Source: J088 sp003695505 [NCBI: Candidatus Dadabacteria bacterium]
Lineage (GTDB): Bacteria > J088
DNA length: 5,759 nt
Assembly: GCA_003695505.1 (NCBI GenBank)
Contig: RFIY01000010.1
Span: forward strand, 1-5,759
Direction of reading: 5' to 3'
Below the pieces are notes generated by a model. It was given only the letters and a program-made list of their open reading frames with translations, had not been told where the DNA came from and ran no database searches. Positions 1 through 3,368 of the stretch are shown in pieces (position 1 is the first letter of the stretch; every line of letters starts with the position of its first letter). The position numbers were made by a program, and so were the translations under genes.

Positions 1-416
1 AGAAAGACGAACACATTGAACGCGTCTCCGGTCACGCTCATCCCGTACAGCCCGGCCGTCATCAGCAGCAGCAGGGCCGAAAAGACATGCTGGCGGCGTC
101 CGGGAATCTCCTGCTCCGCCGCCGACAGAGACCACGGGCCAACGATGGCGCCGATCAGGGCGAGCAACAGGACGATCAGCGCATTGAGTGGGTCGACAAA
201 CAGCTCGATGCCCCACGGCGGTGGCCAGTTCCCGATCGGGTAGGAGATGACGCCCGATTCGAAGACGCGGCCAACGAGCTGAACCGCAACGACGAGCTGG
301 TGCAACAGAACCAGGCTGACAAGCGTCTGGACCGCAGTGCTGCGCCGCAGCAATAGCGCAAGCGGCGCTGCGAGCAGCGGCACGATCACCAGGAAGACTG
401 GCAGATGCGTCATCAT
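1..416 (-). CDS. mnhD: Mrp/Mnh cation:proton antiporter subunit D (NuoN/NuoM-like), 3' end cut by window edge
   Basis: N-terminal 138 residues of a large antiporter-like subunit, normally about 480-520 residues with some 14 helices, homologous to the proton-pumping subunits NuoL/M/N and to MbhH. The frame was read directly from the sequence and has no stop before the window edge. Helices lie near 5-23, 30-50, 76-93 and 112-128. Family features are GNWPPPWGIELFVDPLNAL (62-80), the usual GW-P-GI-L-D-L-AL block, and GDAFNVFVF (130-138), matching GDLFNLFVF just before the truncation. The key lysine and glutamate residues of the proton channel lie further on, outside the window. The start overlaps the mnhC stop as ATGA. 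MnhD and the N-terminal part of MnhA are related, so the exact paralogue cannot be fixed from this fragment; position after mnhC supports D. Confidence 0.9.
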   Translation of the reverse strand, partial: MMTHLPVFLVIVPLLAAPLALLLRRSTAVQTLVSLVLLHQLVVAVQLVGRVFESGVISYPIGNWPPPWGIELFVDPLNALIVLLLALIGAIVGPWSLSAAEQEIPGRRQHVFSALLLLMTAGLYGMSVTGDAFNVFVF

Positions 417-760
417 TCAACGAGCTCCGCGCGGACGATGTCGTCCTCTTCAATCGAGCCGTACGACTCCCAGATGCGCACGATCAGCGCCAGTGCGACG
501 GCAGTCGTCGCGACGCCGACGACGATGGCCGTCAGCATCAGAACATGTGGCAGCGGGTTGGAATAGATTTCGAAGCGCTCGTCGAGGATCGGCGCGGTAC
601 CGCCATGCACCTTGCCGAAGGACACATAGAACAGGATCACGGCGGTCTGTACGACATTCAGTCCGATGACCTTCTTGACCAGGTTTCCATGCGCGATCAT
701 GATGTACAGCCCGATCGCGAGCGTCGCGATCACCGTCCAGTAGCCAAACAGCCCCGTCAT
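413..760 (-). CDS. mnhC: Mrp/Mnh cation:proton antiporter subunit C (NuoK-like)
   Basis: Integral membrane subunit homologous to NuoK of respiratory complex I and to MbhG. The protein has 115 residues with three helices near 5-23, 30-49 and 72-96. The signature IGLNVVQTAVILF (32-44) lies in helix two and NPLPHVLMLTAIVVGVATTA (68-87) opens helix three, typical of MrpC. The C-terminus (97-115) is acidic and hydrophilic. Length matches the usual MrpC (about 110-125). The start overlaps the mnhB stop as ATGA and its own stop overlaps the mnhD start the same way; no good ribosome site precedes it, again suggesting coupling. Confidence 0.95.
   Translation of the reverse strand: MTGLFGYWTVIATLAIGLYIMIAHGNLVKKVIGLNVVQTAVILFYVSFGKVHGGTAPILDERFEIYSNPLPHVLMLTAIVVGVATTAVALALIVRIWESYGSIEEDDIVRAELVE
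425..428 (-). promoter_or_regulatory. Shine-Dalgarno site for mnhD
   Basis: GGAG on the minus strand lies 8 bases before the ATG at 416-414, inside the end of mnhC. A second ATG follows directly at 413-411; the spacing favours the first. Confidence 0.5.
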
Positions 761-1191
761 GATTGACCGTCCCGCCGCAGTTTGTGGCTGGTAAAACTGT
801 AAAACAGCCAGAGCATTGTCGACGCGACGCCAATGCCGACGCCAAGCTCGACCATGAAAATGCCGAGATGCTGGCCATGAACCGGGTCATGCGCGAGCGC
901 ATTGTAGTCGAGGTAGCGGGCACCGCGCAGTAGCGAAACGACCCCTGTCCCTCCGTAAATCATCACGCCGATGGCCGCGCCAATCTGCGTCGCGCGCATC
1001 GGAACGATTCGAAAGGACGCCGCGACCCCGAAAACGAGCGCATACAGAATAATTCCCGCGGCAAGGATTACACCTGCCTGGAATCCGCCTCCGGGGCTGA
1101 AGTCGCCATGAAATTGCACATAGAACGCAAACAGCAGGATGAACGGGATCAGAAATTTGCTGACGACGCGCAGGACAACATCACTCTGCAT
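757..1191 (-). CDS. mnhB: Mrp/Mnh cation:proton antiporter subunit B (MnhB domain)
   Basis: Integral membrane subunit of the Mrp antiporter, equivalent to MbhF. The protein has 144 residues and four predicted helices near 8-25, 38-57, 66-87 and 108-132. The hallmark GDFSPGGGFQAGVILAAG (29-46) matches the PGGGFxxG motif of the family, and the C-terminal helix starts with a conserved-looking block containing Glu115 and Gly117. The ATG at 1191 was chosen because the first helix begins right after it; an in-frame ATG at 1239 would add 16 residues read from the other frame of the upstream gene. The ribosome site is weak, so coupling to the upstream gene (11-base overlap) is likely. Its stop overlaps the mnhC start as ATGA. 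Confidence 0.95.
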   Translation of the reverse strand: MQSDVVLRVVSKFLIPFILLFAFYVQFHGDFSPGGGFQAGVILAAGIILYALVFGVAASFRIVPMRATQIGAAIGVMIYGGTGVVSLLRGARYLDYNALAHDPVHGQHLGIFMVELGVGIGVASTMLWLFYSFTSHKLRRDGQS

Positions 1192-1735
1192 CCTGCCCCC
1201 GCTTTCGTCGCACGCCGGCCAGCAGCGCATAGACGGCAAGGCCGGCCGTGAAAATCACGTTGGTTTCGCCGAGCGTATCGTAGCCACGGTAACTGGCAAG
1301 CACGCTGGTGACGATATTGGGCACGCCGATCTCTTTGCCAGACTGGTGCACATAGCGCCAGGCCGGACGATCAGGCTGGTTGACGGGTGACGTCGGATCC
1401 CCGTAAGCGGGCATGTCGGGTGTGGCGTAGAGCATCATCGCGGCAACCGCCAGCGCGGCGGACAGCGCGCCAATCCGGTTGCGGACACGGCCGGTCTCGA
1501 CCCGCTCATCGAGCAGACTCAACGCGCCGAGCATCAGCACCGTCGACAGTCCGGCGCCGACGGCCGCCTCGGTAAAGGCGACATCGACGGCATCGACAAT
1601 CGTGTAGTAGACGGCGCAGAGCAGACTGAAAAAACCCGTCAGCATCGCCGCGGCAAACAGATCACGCAACCGGGCGAGGTCCAGCGCAACGACAACGAGC
1701 GCGATCAGCAGGACAAGGTGCAGCCAGTCGGTCAT
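1181..1735 (-). CDS. Stand-alone MrpA C-terminal homologue: fused MbhD (DUF4040) and MbhE domains
   Basis: Membrane protein of 184 residues equivalent to the C-terminal tail of MrpA/MnhA and to the separate MbhD and MbhE subunits of Mbh hydrogenases. Helices lie near 4-22, 26-46, 55-73 and 87-104, with a last one near 157-175. The MbhD part contains DVAFTEAAVGAGLSTVL (51-67) with Glu56; the MbhE part contains SVLASYRGYDTLGETNV (144-160) with Asp153 and Glu157, matching the RGFDTLGE block of MrpA. Between them is a polar loop (105-136). In canonical Mrp operons these domains are attached to a large NuoL-like pump of about 600 residues in front, which is absent here. Automatic annotation may label it subunit B or a hydrogenase subunit. 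It starts with an ATGA overlap with mnhG and overlaps mnhB by 11 bases. Confidence 0.9.
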   Translation of the reverse strand: MTDWLHLVLLIALVVVALDLARLRDLFAAAMLTGFFSLLCAVYYTIVDAVDVAFTEAAVGAGLSTVLMLGALSLLDERVETGRVRNRIGALSAALAVAAMMLYATPDMPAYGDPTSPVNQPDRPAWRYVHQSGKEIGVPNIVTSVLASYRGYDTLGETNVIFTAGLAVYALLAGVRRKRGQDAE

Positions 1736-2100
1736 TGCACCTCCTCCGTGTTGTCGCCGTCCTCATCGCGGTGGAACGGATCCGGGCCTGCACCGAGGAC
1801 CGGCTCGATGCCACGGATCCAGGCGGCCTGGACGAGTGCGTGGGTTGCCGTCGGGCCACTGATCCAGAGAAAACCAAGCACCATCAGCAATTTGATGCCA
1901 ACGCCAAAGCTGGGCGCCTGCAGCAGCAGTCCGGTCAGAATCGCCAGCACCCCGAGCGTGTCGCTGACGCCGCTGGCATGTGTGCGACTGTAGACGTCGG
2001 GGAACCGGTGCAGACCGATTCCGGCCAGTACACAGGCCGCGCTGCCGATCAGCAGCAATGCCCACGACAGGATGTCAAGGATCAGCGCGGCGGTTTCCAC
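1732..2100 (-). CDS. mnhG: Mrp/Mnh cation:proton antiporter subunit G
   Basis: Integral membrane subunit of the Mrp antiporter, equivalent to MbhC. The protein has 122 residues with three hydrophobic helices near 6-29, 46-60 and 66-86. Family hallmarks are GIGLHRFPDVYSRTHASG (28-45) after the first helix and SGPTATHALVQAAW (81-94) after the third. The final stretch (107-120) is rich in Asp and Glu and is not part of the conserved core. The start is GTG, with a purine-rich ribosome site. Its last codons carry the strong ribosome site of the next gene, and its stop overlaps that gene's ATG as ATGA. Confidence 0.95.
   Translation of the reverse strand: METAALILDILSWALLLIGSAACVLAGIGLHRFPDVYSRTHASGVSDTLGVLAILTGLLLQAPSFGVGIKLLMVLGFLWISGPTATHALVQAAWIRGIEPVLGAGPDPFHRDEDGDNTEEVQ
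1740..1747 (-). promoter_or_regulatory. Strong Shine-Dalgarno site for the MbhD/MbhE-like gene
   Basis: GGAGGAGG on the minus strand ends 4 bases before the ATG at 1735-1733 and encodes the Glu-Glu near the end of MnhG. It is the strongest ribosome site in the window, so this subunit may be initiated independently as well as by coupling. Confidence 0.75.
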
Positions 2101-2399
2101 GGAAACATCTCTTCCTGATGGCGTCGTTCGAGGCCGCCGTCGAGACCCAGATTGCGATAACGGATGAACTTGAGTACGGCAAGCGTGCCGATAAAATTGA
2201 GCAGCGCATAGATCAGCGCCAGATCGAGCCAGTCCGGTCGCCCCGTCAAAAAACCACTGACAGCGATCAGCAGTACGGCAATCGTCCCCATGGCGTTGAC
2301 CGCGAGAATCCGGTCAAAGGTGGTCGGTCCGCGCACCGCTCTCATCAGCGCCAGCAGCAACGCAACAACAAGGGCGATCGCGGTCACTTCGTACTTCAC
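2082..2399 (-). CDS. mnhF: Mrp/Mnh cation:proton antiporter subunit F
   Basis: Integral membrane subunit of the Mrp antiporter complex, equivalent to MbhB. The protein has 105 residues with three hydrophobic helices near 4-20, 35-52 and 57-78. The family motif RGPTTFDRILAVNAMGT (23-39) contains the conserved Asp29, and a second conserved block, DLALIYALLNFIGT (59-72), lies in the third helix. The C-terminus is hydrophilic (79-105) and includes a proline-rich end. Translation starts at GTG. The last 19 bases overlap mnhG in another frame, so the two are probably made together. Subunits E, F and G form a peripheral part of the complex in Mrp structures; how each contributes to ion movement is not settled by the sequence. 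Confidence 0.95.
   Translation of the reverse strand: MKYEVTAIALVVALLLALMRAVRGPTTFDRILAVNAMGTIAVLLIAVSGFLTGRPDWLDLALIYALLNFIGTLAVLKFIRYRNLGLDGGLERRHQEEMFPWKPPR
2109..2116 (-). promoter_or_regulatory. Shine-Dalgarno site supporting the GTG start of mnhG
   Basis: AGGAAGAG on the minus strand lies 8 bases before the GTG at 2100-2098, inside the coding region of mnhF. It supports a GTG start 19 bases before the end of mnhF. Confidence 0.6.
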
Positions 2400-2400
2400 G

Positions 2401-2877
2401 TCAGTCCACCTCGAGTGCCGCGACGCGACGGTTCATGTCGTCGCTGAGCAGACCATCTGCCGCCGCGGCATCGACGGCGTGTACGAGCAGCGTGCGACCC
2501 GCGACATCGACGGTCACGGTGCCAGGTGTCAGGGTAATGCTGTTGGCGAGGATCGCGAGGGTCTCGTCGTGGTGTTGTCGCCCGTCGACGACCACCCAGC
2601 GCGGGCTGATCGCGCCGCGACCGCGGATGATCAGACCGATCACGGCCCAGTTGGCAAGTAGAATCTCACGCAGCAACCATGGCACATACAGCAGAAAACG
2701 CCACGTCAGATGCAGCGGAGCACTTTCGCGGTCGAGCAGTTGCATGCGCAGGCTGAGCCAGATCGTGATCGCGACGCTCACCGCACCGAGGCTGAGCAGC
2801 AGCGGCTCGAAGTAGCCGGACCAGAGCAACCAGATGCCCGAAAACAGTACAACAAGAGTCGCGAGTCGGAAGGTCAT
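2401..2877 (-). CDS. mnhE: Mrp/Mnh cation:proton antiporter subunit E
   Basis: Small membrane subunit of the multisubunit Mrp (Mnh, Sha) antiporter, which exchanges cytoplasmic sodium or another monovalent cation for external protons; equivalent to MbhA of Mbh hydrogenases. The protein has 158 residues: two hydrophobic helices near 5-22 and 25-44, a hydrophobic stretch at 61-84, then a cytoplasmic C-terminal domain with the family hallmark NSITLTPGTVTVDVAG (112-127) and a following LVHAV. The start at 2877 overlaps the FolK-like stop as ATGA, with only a weak ribosome site, so translation probably depends on the upstream gene. The in-frame ATG at 3024 would sit deep in the FolK-like gene and adds a non-homologous, hydrophilic N-terminus. 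One base separates its stop from the next start. Confidence 0.95.
   Translation of the reverse strand: MTFRLATLVVLFSGIWLLWSGYFEPLLLSLGAVSVAITIWLSLRMQLLDRESAPLHLTWRFLLYVPWLLREILLANWAVIGLIIRGRGAISPRWVVVDGRQHHDETLAILANSITLTPGTVTVDVAGRTLLVHAVDAAAADGLLSDDMNRRVAALEVD
2409..2412 (-). promoter_or_regulatory. Shine-Dalgarno site supporting the GTG start of mnhF
   Basis: GAGG on the minus strand lies 9 bases before the GTG at 2399-2397 and overlaps the last codons of mnhE. It supports a GTG start, since no ATG lies at the beginning of the conserved region. Confidence 0.55.
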
Positions 2878-3368
2878 AGCTGATGCCGATTCCCAGAGGC
2901 CGTGGGGACCAGTTGCGACGGCGGTTGTTCGAGGCGTGCCAGCGGGATCATCACGAAGGGTCGGTCTCGGGCGCGTGGGTGCGGCAATGTCAGCCGCCTG
3001 TATTTCAGTGTACGCCAGCCCCATGATTCACGCCAGCAGATCAGGTCAATATCGGCGGGACGGTTGCCACCGGGATGTCGGCGTCCGAGGCGCCGTTCGA
3101 TGCGTTTGACGCGGTCAAGCAGGCGGATCGGCGCCAGATCCGTTTCGATACGGGCACAGGCATTCCAGAAGCGGCCGGTGACGCCCGGGCCATGGGCAGG
3201 GTTGCGCAGTACGGGGCTGACTTCACAGAGTCTCGTGCGCGGCAGGCCGTCCAAGGCGCGAATCAGTCGTTGCCAGCGCCAGCCGTGCGGTGGGACGTTG
3301 AGTCCGATGGCCAGCCAGACGGTCGCGCGGCGGTCAGTCGATGCGCGCGTCAGACCAGCCGAGCACAT
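2874..3368 (-). CDS. folK: Divergent FolK-like 6-hydroxymethyl-dihydropterin pyrophosphokinase (HPPK)
   Basis: HPPK moves pyrophosphate from ATP to 6-hydroxymethyl-dihydropterin in folate synthesis. From the ATG at 3368 this protein has 164 residues, normal for the family. Family landmarks: AIGLN (20-24, for the usual AIGSN), Asn69, IERRLGR (90-96) with Glu91 and Arg96, NRPADIDLI (102-110) with the magnesium-binding Asp106 and Asp108, and RLTLPHP (125-131) with His130, then Arg136. Differences from E. coli: TPPL is NPAH (56-59), Tyr53 is Phe67, and loop 3 between Arg96 and Arg103 is three residues shorter and lacks the equivalents of Arg84 and Trp89. The start is uncertain: no ATG, GTG or TTG lies closer to the conserved core, 3368 has no clear ribosome site, and it overlaps dapB by 35 bases. 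The stop is coupled to mnhE by ATGA. The fold is convincing; the substrate could differ from the standard pterin. Confidence 0.8.
   Translation of the reverse strand: MCSAGLTRASTDRRATVWLAIGLNVPPHGWRWQRLIRALDGLPRTRLCEVSPVLRNPAHGPGVTGRFWNACARIETDLAPIRLLDRVKRIERRLGRRHPGGNRPADIDLICWRESWGWRTLKYRRLTLPHPRARDRPFVMIPLARLEQPPSQLVPTASGNRHQL

What the first reader, a model, noticed from the sequence alone, without database searches (positions are those of the whole stretch)
1..2877. Bacterial Mrp cluster in the gene order of an archaeal Mbh hydrogenase membrane module
The order E-F-G-(MrpA C-terminal domains)-B-C-D equals mbhA-B-C-(D,E)-F-G-H of membrane-bound hydrogenase clusters, not the canonical mrpABCDEFG order. 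Seen directly: the order and the family motifs. Known: Mbh, Mbs and Mrp share this membrane arm. Inferred: this belongs to the alternative (group 2-like) Mrp type, or to the membrane arm of a larger redox complex. Clusters of this type are known, so the novelty lies in which variant this is.
Basis: partly seen in the sequence, partly recalled or inferred. Interest (0 to 1): 0.6.

Follow-up and report, generated by a model that had tools for sequence, protein, structure and literature searches.

The report
Ordinary bacterial group 3 Mrp antiporter
This is one end of a common kind of bacterial sodium/proton exchanger operon whose gene order matches that of archaeal hydrogenase membrane arms; the order is already in print, but the operon carries a small conserved membrane protein that I found in none of the protein family collections I searched.

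Summary
On the minus strand the window reads mnhE-mrpF-mnhG-(fused MbhD+MbhE)-mnhB-mnhC-mnhD, cut at base 1. The continuation is very probably contig C127 of the same genome: the rest of D1, then D2, a small frame 'X', D3, and radC. This is a published type: a group 3 Mrp antiporter (no mrpA gene, several mrpD genes). It is not group 2-like, and I found no sign of a redox partner. Pyrococcus furiosus has mrpEFGBB'CD with the same D+E fusion, and E-F-G-first clusters are in print for several bacteria. I found the order in 78 of 80 named loci (the other two have genes broken into pieces, in the right order). Trees of B and C place the window with other E-F-G-first clusters, apart from canonical Mrp and Mbh/Mbs; deep branches are weak. 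Best explanation: a stand-alone, pmf-driven Na+(K+)/H+ antiporter with three proton-channel subunits, D3 being the MrpA/NuoL-like one. New to me is X, a two-helix protein found between D2 and D3 in all 58 loci holding both, without a Pfam, NCBIfam or PDB match; it stays with D3 even where the operon is split. The finding is ordinary; X is the lead worth following.

The parts
2401..2877 (-). mnhE/mrpE (MbhA equivalent)
   Evidence: PF01899 9.7e-28 (given as 2401-2880); its start overlaps the folK stop by 4 bases
2082..2399 (-). mrpF (MbhB equivalent)
   Evidence: PF04066 1.9e-17
1732..2100 (-). mnhG/mrpG (MbhC equivalent)
   Evidence: PF03334 1.1e-22
1181..1735 (-). fused MbhD+MbhE protein (MrpA C-terminal domain equivalent; MrpB of P. 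furiosus stand-alone Mrp)
   Evidence: PF13244 1.9e-14 and PF20501 2.9e-8; NF009159 over cut-off, 191.6 of 141 bits; Glu56/Gly60 of the MbhD/MbsD type
757..1194 (-). mnhB/mrpB (MbhF equivalent)
   Evidence: PF04039 6.2e-28; NF009162 over cut-off, 188 of 120 bits
413..760 (-). mnhC/mrpC (MbhG equivalent)
   Evidence: PF00420 1.9e-22; best solved relative MbsG, 6.1e-21
3..416 (-). mnhD (D1, MbhH equivalent), first 138 aa, runs off the contig end
   Evidence: NF009305 2.3e-28; aligns to residues 10-145 of a 499 aa D1; probably continued on contig C127 = L028:3-788 (residues 238-494), leaving about 92 residues in the gap

Best explanation
A stand-alone group 3 Mrp cation/proton antiporter operon, E-F-G-(D+E)-B-C-D1-D2-X-D3, split over two contigs. 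E, F, G, B and the MbhD-like domain form the Na+ (or K+) module; Glu56 of the D+E protein sits at the place of MbsD Glu58 / MbhD Glu69. C links it to D1, and D1, D2 and D3 are three proton channels in a row. D3, with a C-terminal helix and last TM, takes the part of the MrpA N-terminal half/NuoL. The pmf drives cation export against proton import. Shown here: gene content, order, homology, residues, a D3 fold model. Inferred: that the two contigs are one operon, assembly into one complex, antiport, its direction and its ion.
For: Families. The held genome's only MnhB match is in the window and its only three Proton_antipo_M matches are on C127, whose edge continues D1. Same order in 78 of 80 named loci, 59 of them holding both E and D3. 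P. furiosus mrpEFGBB'CD, with MrpB = MbhD+MbhE, is called a stand-alone group 3 Mrp (PMC8415708, passages). Residues at MrpD E137, K219, K250 and K392 are kept in 66 of 66 D1 and 55 of 55 D2 rows (frames of 440-540 aa only; others dropped); D3 (480-620 aa) keeps three in 55 of 55 and K219 in 42 of 55; own D2 and D3 have all four. D3 model: pLDDT 90, helix 494-532 and terminal helix 542-564; best Foldseek match MrpA of B. pseudofirmus, 4.9e-23. No redox genes beside it.
Against: No function was tested. The genome is 84.5% complete, so a redox partner elsewhere could be missing, and PF00346 and PF00374 are only two possible partners. The join C118-C127 rests on homology, not on reads. Own D1 residues E137 and K219 fall in the gap and were not read. 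By sequence D3's best solved relative is an MrpD, with MbsH' and MrpA close behind, and VIA-align ties MrpD with NuoL chains.
Confidence: 0.9

Rival explanations
1. Membrane arm of a larger redox complex (Mbh, Mbs or complex I-like) whose catalytic genes lie elsewhere or were not assembled.
For: C has MbsG as best solved relative and the D1 of G006 has MbsH; the D+E protein has the MbhD/MbsD-type Glu.
Against: No PF00346 or PF00374 in the held genome; folK and radC border the operon; 80 of 81 relatives' loci show no redox-module hit, and L039 only far from the cluster. The trees do not nest the cluster in Mbh or Mbs.
Confidence: 0.05
2. Canonical mrpABCDEFG operon locally rearranged in this lineage.
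For: Same families; MnhB is closest among solved chains to a canonical MrpB, and in the B tree three canonical MrpB lie nearer to the E-F-G-first rows than the other canonical rows do.
Against: The order is shared by loci whose titles name many phyla; B and C trees place the window with E-F-G-first rows; all eight A-first comparators have Q...E where all E-F-G-first ones have E...G. One-clade tests were not significant (p-AU 0.306 for canonical C rows, 0.122 for E-F-G-first B rows), so neither arrangement is excluded at depth.
Confidence: 0.02
3. The complex moves K+, or serves bicarbonate uptake or osmotic balance, rather than exporting Na+ for pH homeostasis.
For: Mrp systems differ in ion (PMC5703873, passages); in 'Ca. 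Nitrospira alkalitolerans' a group 3 Mrp lies with bicA (PMC7784846, passages).
Against: No gene that I identified in the window or on C127 points to it; the Glu at the proposed Na+ site is kept.
Confidence: 0.2

Closest known systems
Stand-alone group 3 Mrp of Pyrococcus furiosus, mrpEFGBB'CD (Pf1147-53; PMC8415708, passages read)
   Same: Same gene order; the same MbhD+MbhE fusion; no mrpA; no redox module.
   Different: P. furiosus has one mrpD; here, with C127, three D genes plus X.
Bacterial E-F-G-first or group 3 Mrp in print: Solemya velum symbiont MrpEFGBBCDD (PMC4287430), Unc8 MrpEFGBBBCD + MrpDD (PMC6305446), 'Ca. Nitrospira alkalitolerans' group 3 (PMC7784846), Verruconatronum MrpEFGBCD1D2D3 (PMC13274419); passages only
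   Same: E-F-G-first naming (not stated for Nitrospira in the passages) and extra D genes.
   Different: None of the passages I read mentions a small protein between D genes; I did not check those genomes for X.
Haloarchaeal plasmid clusters (Haloterrigena, L118 and L142)
   Same: E-F-G-DUF4040-B-C-D-D-D; L118's D1, D2 and D3 group with the bacterial D1, D2 and D3.
   Different: No X in L118; D2 and D3 are longer (651-657 and 617 aa).
Mbh and Mbs of P. furiosus
   Same: Membrane-arm gene order; MbhD-type Glu.
   Different: They carry a catalytic module (J-N; PMC8415708); none found here. The cluster is not nested in them in my trees.
Canonical Mrp groups 1 and 2
   Same: Same subunit families.
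   Different: A-first order with a large MrpA, Q...E motif.

Membership tests
Group 3 Mrp antiporter | Subunit families B, C, D, E, F, G present | tested here: met
Group 3 Mrp antiporter | No mrpA gene, only mrpD-like genes, sometimes several | tested here: met
   Three Proton_antipo_M matches in the held genome, all separate genes on C127; genome 84.5% complete
Group 3 Mrp antiporter | Gene order unlike ABCDEFG | tested here: met
Group 3 Mrp antiporter | Cation/proton antiport activity | not testable with these tools
   needs expression
Mbh/Mbs redox complex | NiFe-hydrogenase-like or 49 kDa-like catalytic subunit with the membrane arm | tested here: not met
   No PF00346 or PF00374 in the held genome (they were found in 11 and 5 of 14 control genomes); none in 80 of 81 relatives' loci. 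Limit: genome 84.5% complete
Mrp group 1 | mrpABCDEFG with a full-length MrpA and separate mrpB | tested here: not met
   The MbhD+E protein stands alone, 184 aa, between G and B
Mrp group 2 | mrpA fused with mrpB, no separate mrpB | tested here: not met
   Separate mnhB

The most novel reading that the evidence does not exclude
X is an undescribed dedicated subunit (or assembly factor) of three-channel group 3 Mrp complexes: a two-helix membrane protein that docks the MrpA/NuoL-like D3 to the rest, so that X-D3 is a detachable third-channel module that is swapped between operons and, in one clade, has lost the central TM7 lysine of D3 (Lys to Asn).
Probability: 0.5. Interest if true: 0.5.

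Novelty: new member of a known kind. Interest (0 to 1): 0.25.

Why it matters
The cluster shows that an Mbh-ordered, three-channel arm without redox genes beside it is common in bacteria, which bears on how Mrp, Mbh/Mbs and complex I were put together from modules: the D1, D2 and D3 types occur in both bacteria and a haloarchaeon. If X is a real subunit, these complexes have a part for which no solved relative was found, and X-D3 would be a natural plug-in channel in which the need for the TM7 lysine can be tested.

Tried and rejected
Single-sequence scan of genome contigs with the D+E protein: no relative found; a three-sequence alignment worked. X against Pfam, NCBIfam and PDB: only scattered weak matches, best 0.0012, no family shared by more than 4 of 28 members. 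X fold: pLDDT 69, two PDB matches, E 6.9 and 9.1: uninformative. Idea that X is fused into the longer haloarchaeal D2 or D3: no match. Idea that X Arg/Gly and D3 Lys/Asn coevolve residue by residue: 56 of 56 loci agreed in the first set, but Asn is one clade on the D3 tree and a second set gave four exceptions, L158-L161, Lys with Gly, so I read it as lineage plus linkage. One-clade tests: canonical C rows held together p-AU 0.306, E-F-G-first B rows held together p-AU 0.122: neither rejected, so the deep order is open. Several reference rows have long branches (NuoK, MbhG, L119, L035). The folK, dapB, dapA and dapF proteins and RadC had no relative in the flanks of 81 loci. I could not name the genome: the other genomes offered as relatives were all 'same domain' only. 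One search's first motif pattern was defined and not used.
Full report
What is there. On the minus strand it reads a frame I take for dapF (recalled, not scanned), dapA, dapB, folK, mnhE, mrpF, mnhG, a 184 aa protein with MbhD and MbhE domains, mnhB, mnhC and the first 138 aa of a subunit D. From folK on, neighbouring genes abut or overlap by up to 19 bases.

The missing half. The held genome has one MnhB match, in the window, and three Proton_antipo_M matches, all on contig C127. C127 (L028, 6445 bases) begins inside a subunit D gene, followed by a complete D2 (487 aa), a small frame X (87-105 aa by start choice), D3 (567 aa) and radC. The window's D1 piece aligns to residues 10-145 and the C127 piece to 238-494 of a complete D1 of genome G006, so about 92 residues fall in the gap. 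I infer one operon E-F-G-(D+E)-B-C-D1-D2-X-D3. Reads to prove the join were not available.

How common it is. Hits sorted by stop position follow the order in 78 of 80 loci; the other two (L076, L113) have genes broken into pieces, in the right order; 59 of the 78 hold both E and D3, the rest mostly being cut by contig ends. In 24 of 80 loci a single frame over 290 aa suggests that D+E and B are fused. Record titles include Rhodospirillales, Gammaproteobacteria, Myxococcales, Planctomycetota, Acidobacteriota, Gemmatimonadetes, Nitrospirae and Latescibacteria, and named strains such as Shewanella atlantica, Thiohalocapsa marina, Caenispirillum bisanense and Magnetovibrio blakemorei. Two haloarchaeal plasmids carry E-F-G-DUF4040-B-C-D-D-D and a Peptoclostridium plasmid E-F-G-D-E-B-C-D-D-D.

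Trees. Subunit C (38 rows): the window lies with 18 other three-D rows (79/88), inside a group of all 24 E-F-G-first rows (93/94), apart from MbsG, MbhG and the 11 canonical rows; the canonical rows themselves fall in two sets, five of them with MbhG. Subunit D (62 rows, quick method; the own D1, being in two pieces, was left out, own D2 and D3 are in): 20 bacterial D1 and the D1 of L031, L035, Peptoclostridium and two haloarchaea form one group (SH-aLRT 99), apart from canonical MrpD, MbsH and MbhH; D2 groups with D2 of L118, L035 and Peptoclostridium (100), D3 with D3 of L118 (97). Against a simple picture: the third D of L035 and of Peptoclostridium do not join D3, and the second and third D of L031 group with E. 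coli NuoL and NuoM (100 each). Subunit B (30 rows): the 15 three-D rows are one group (93/90), but three canonical MrpB (S. aureus, 6z16, 7qru) lie nearer to them than five other A-first rows, and Peptoclostridium lies with the latter on a very long branch. Deep branches are weak and two one-clade tests were not significant (p-AU 0.306 and 0.122).

A residue that goes with the order. PDB alignments show Glu in MbhD and MbsD where B. pseudofirmus MrpA has Gln, with MrpA's Glu four residues on. By my counting in those alignments these are MbsD E58, MbhD E69 and MrpA E687; the papers name E58 in MbsD (PMC7684303), E69 in MbhD as the homologue of MrpA E706 of Anoxybacillus (PMC7419157) and Glu687 of MrpA as strictly conserved and tied to sodium transfer (PMC9568556), all read as passages. 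E...G occurs in 82 of 82 (window, L030, 80 loci) and in 5 of 5 other E-F-G-first comparators; Q...E in 8 of 8 A-first comparators. Caveat: the 80 loci were fetched with two patterns, one of which holds this Glu, and L030 and L031 were in the query alignment.

Redox partner. The held genome has no match to PF00346 or PF00374, which were found in 11 and 5 of 14 control genomes. In 81 loci (1.21 Mb; flanks of unequal length) ten E. coli Nuo and Hyf subunits matched only L039, away from the cluster: a hyfA-like protein at 18082-18564 on the other strand (1.3e-10) and a weak hyfH hit at 2348-3301 (2.1e-4).

D3. The model of a relative (L065; 36 rows) has pLDDT 90 and shows, after the usual core, a 39-residue helix (494-532; block means about 63-86) and a last helix (542-564; about 65-81). 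The 39-residue helix has mean hydrophobicity 0.17, the lowest of 15 helices compared, and moment 0.26, shared with one other. Foldseek ranks MrpA of B. pseudofirmus first (E 4.9e-23, rmsd 7.3); VIA-align ties MrpD of the same species (Z 44.2) with several NuoL chains, some aligned into the terminal helix at rmsd 6-8. PMC7684303 (passages) says helix HL holds the antiporter-like subunits together and is longer in complexes with more of them. I infer that D3 takes the place of the MrpA N-terminal half.

X. All 58 loci with D2 and D3 over 250 aa (57 named plus L030) hold X between them (in L054 my start-codon rule listed no frame, but BLAST and the profile found X). The X profile, at E 1e-3, found X in 65 of 91 loci searched; 46 of these and the own X were its seeds, 18 were not. 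Of the 82 three-D loci (80, L030, L028), 17 lack it: the gene lists show that 14 end before X, L106 has a run of N, and L117 and L099 have no D3 either. None of nine comparators (L031-L037, L118, L119) has X. The consensus over 65 rows has two hydrophobic stretches and ends in R-x-E-D-Y-Y-D, its two Tyr kept in 94 and 98%. No Pfam, NCBIfam or PDB match above scattered noise. Fifteen named genomes, 13 of them chosen among those already known to have X, all have it, at 16 places; with two places, all 18 have D3 beside X and 17 also D2. The exception, L131, is the Oleiphilus MAG whose E-F-G-(D+E+B)-C-D1-D2 (L117) lies on another contig: X went with D3. Among 398 genomes of the phylum of Teredinibacter (L058), 23 have a match; of 25 new places 23 have a D3-like match beside X (one, L165, weak), L149 is 1802 bases long and shows only a D2-like match, and L166 has none and is probably chance.

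D3 subtypes. D3 has Asn for the TM7 lysine in 13 of 55 rows; D1 (66 rows) and D2 (55 rows) never. These Asn rows are one side of a branch on the D3 tree with that column removed (SH-aLRT 100), but need 8 changes on the D1 tree (52 rows; 4 independent pairs on supported branches, sign test p 0.125) and 4 on the D2 tree (46 rows, at least 2 forced). This fits exchange of X-D3 between operons, though these trees are poorly resolved. In the first set X has Arg with Lys (43) and Gly or Ala with Asn (12 and 1); in the second, read by eye, 12 Arg-Lys, 6 Gly-Asn and 4 Gly-Lys, with three loci not scored (L149, L165, L166).

What is known. Ito et al. (PMC5703873, passages) and PMC8415708 (passages) define group 3; the latter gives the stand-alone mrpEFGBB'CD. 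E-F-G-first clusters are in print for bacteria in PMC4287430, PMC6305446 and PMC13274419 (passages), and PMC7784846 (passages) describes a group 3 cluster with two NuoM/NuoL-like genes after mrpD. That X is undescribed rests and on paper searches, none of which could ask for X by sequence; most subscription papers are not held.

Verdict. A correct observation of a known type; group 3, not group 2-like; a stand-alone antiporter is by far the likeliest. X is the part I would follow.

Noticed in passing
L028:2197-2514 (ATG at 2245), relatives in 64 further loci: Small two-helix protein X between D2 and D3, consensus ending R-x-E-D-Y-Y-D, without a known family; beside D3 at every place where this could be read, save one chance-like match (L166).
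   Followed up: yes
L117 (13350 on) and L131: In an Oleiphilus MAG the operon is split: E to D2 on one contig, X-D3 on another.
   Followed up: partly
L099:5206-7307: A Gammaproteobacteria MAG has E-F-G-(D+E)-B with no C or D genes after it; the same genome has D2-X-D3 elsewhere (L133).
   Followed up: partly
D3 of L042, L059 and 11 other loci: The TM7 lysine of D3 is Asn in 13 of 55 rows, one clade; this channel may not pump in the usual way.
   Followed up: partly
   Followed up: no
window 2874-2877: folK and mnhE overlap by 4 bases, so folK and the mrp genes may share a transcript; none of 81 relatives' loci has dap or folK relatives in its flanks.
   Followed up: partly
genome G000: No Proton_antipo_M match besides the three on C127 and no PF00346 match: no sign of complex I in the held genome; and the other genomes offered as relatives were all only of the same domain, so its phylum may be unsampled.
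   Followed up: no
L143:3497-12603: Rubrobacter tropicus plasmid with a compact complex I-like operon (nuoA, a 720 aa protein annotated 'heavy metal-binding', a complex I subunit 1 family gene, J, K, L-like, M, N).
   Followed up: no
L028:4961-6109: 382 aa frame after radC on C127 without a Pfam match at E 0.1.
   Followed up: no
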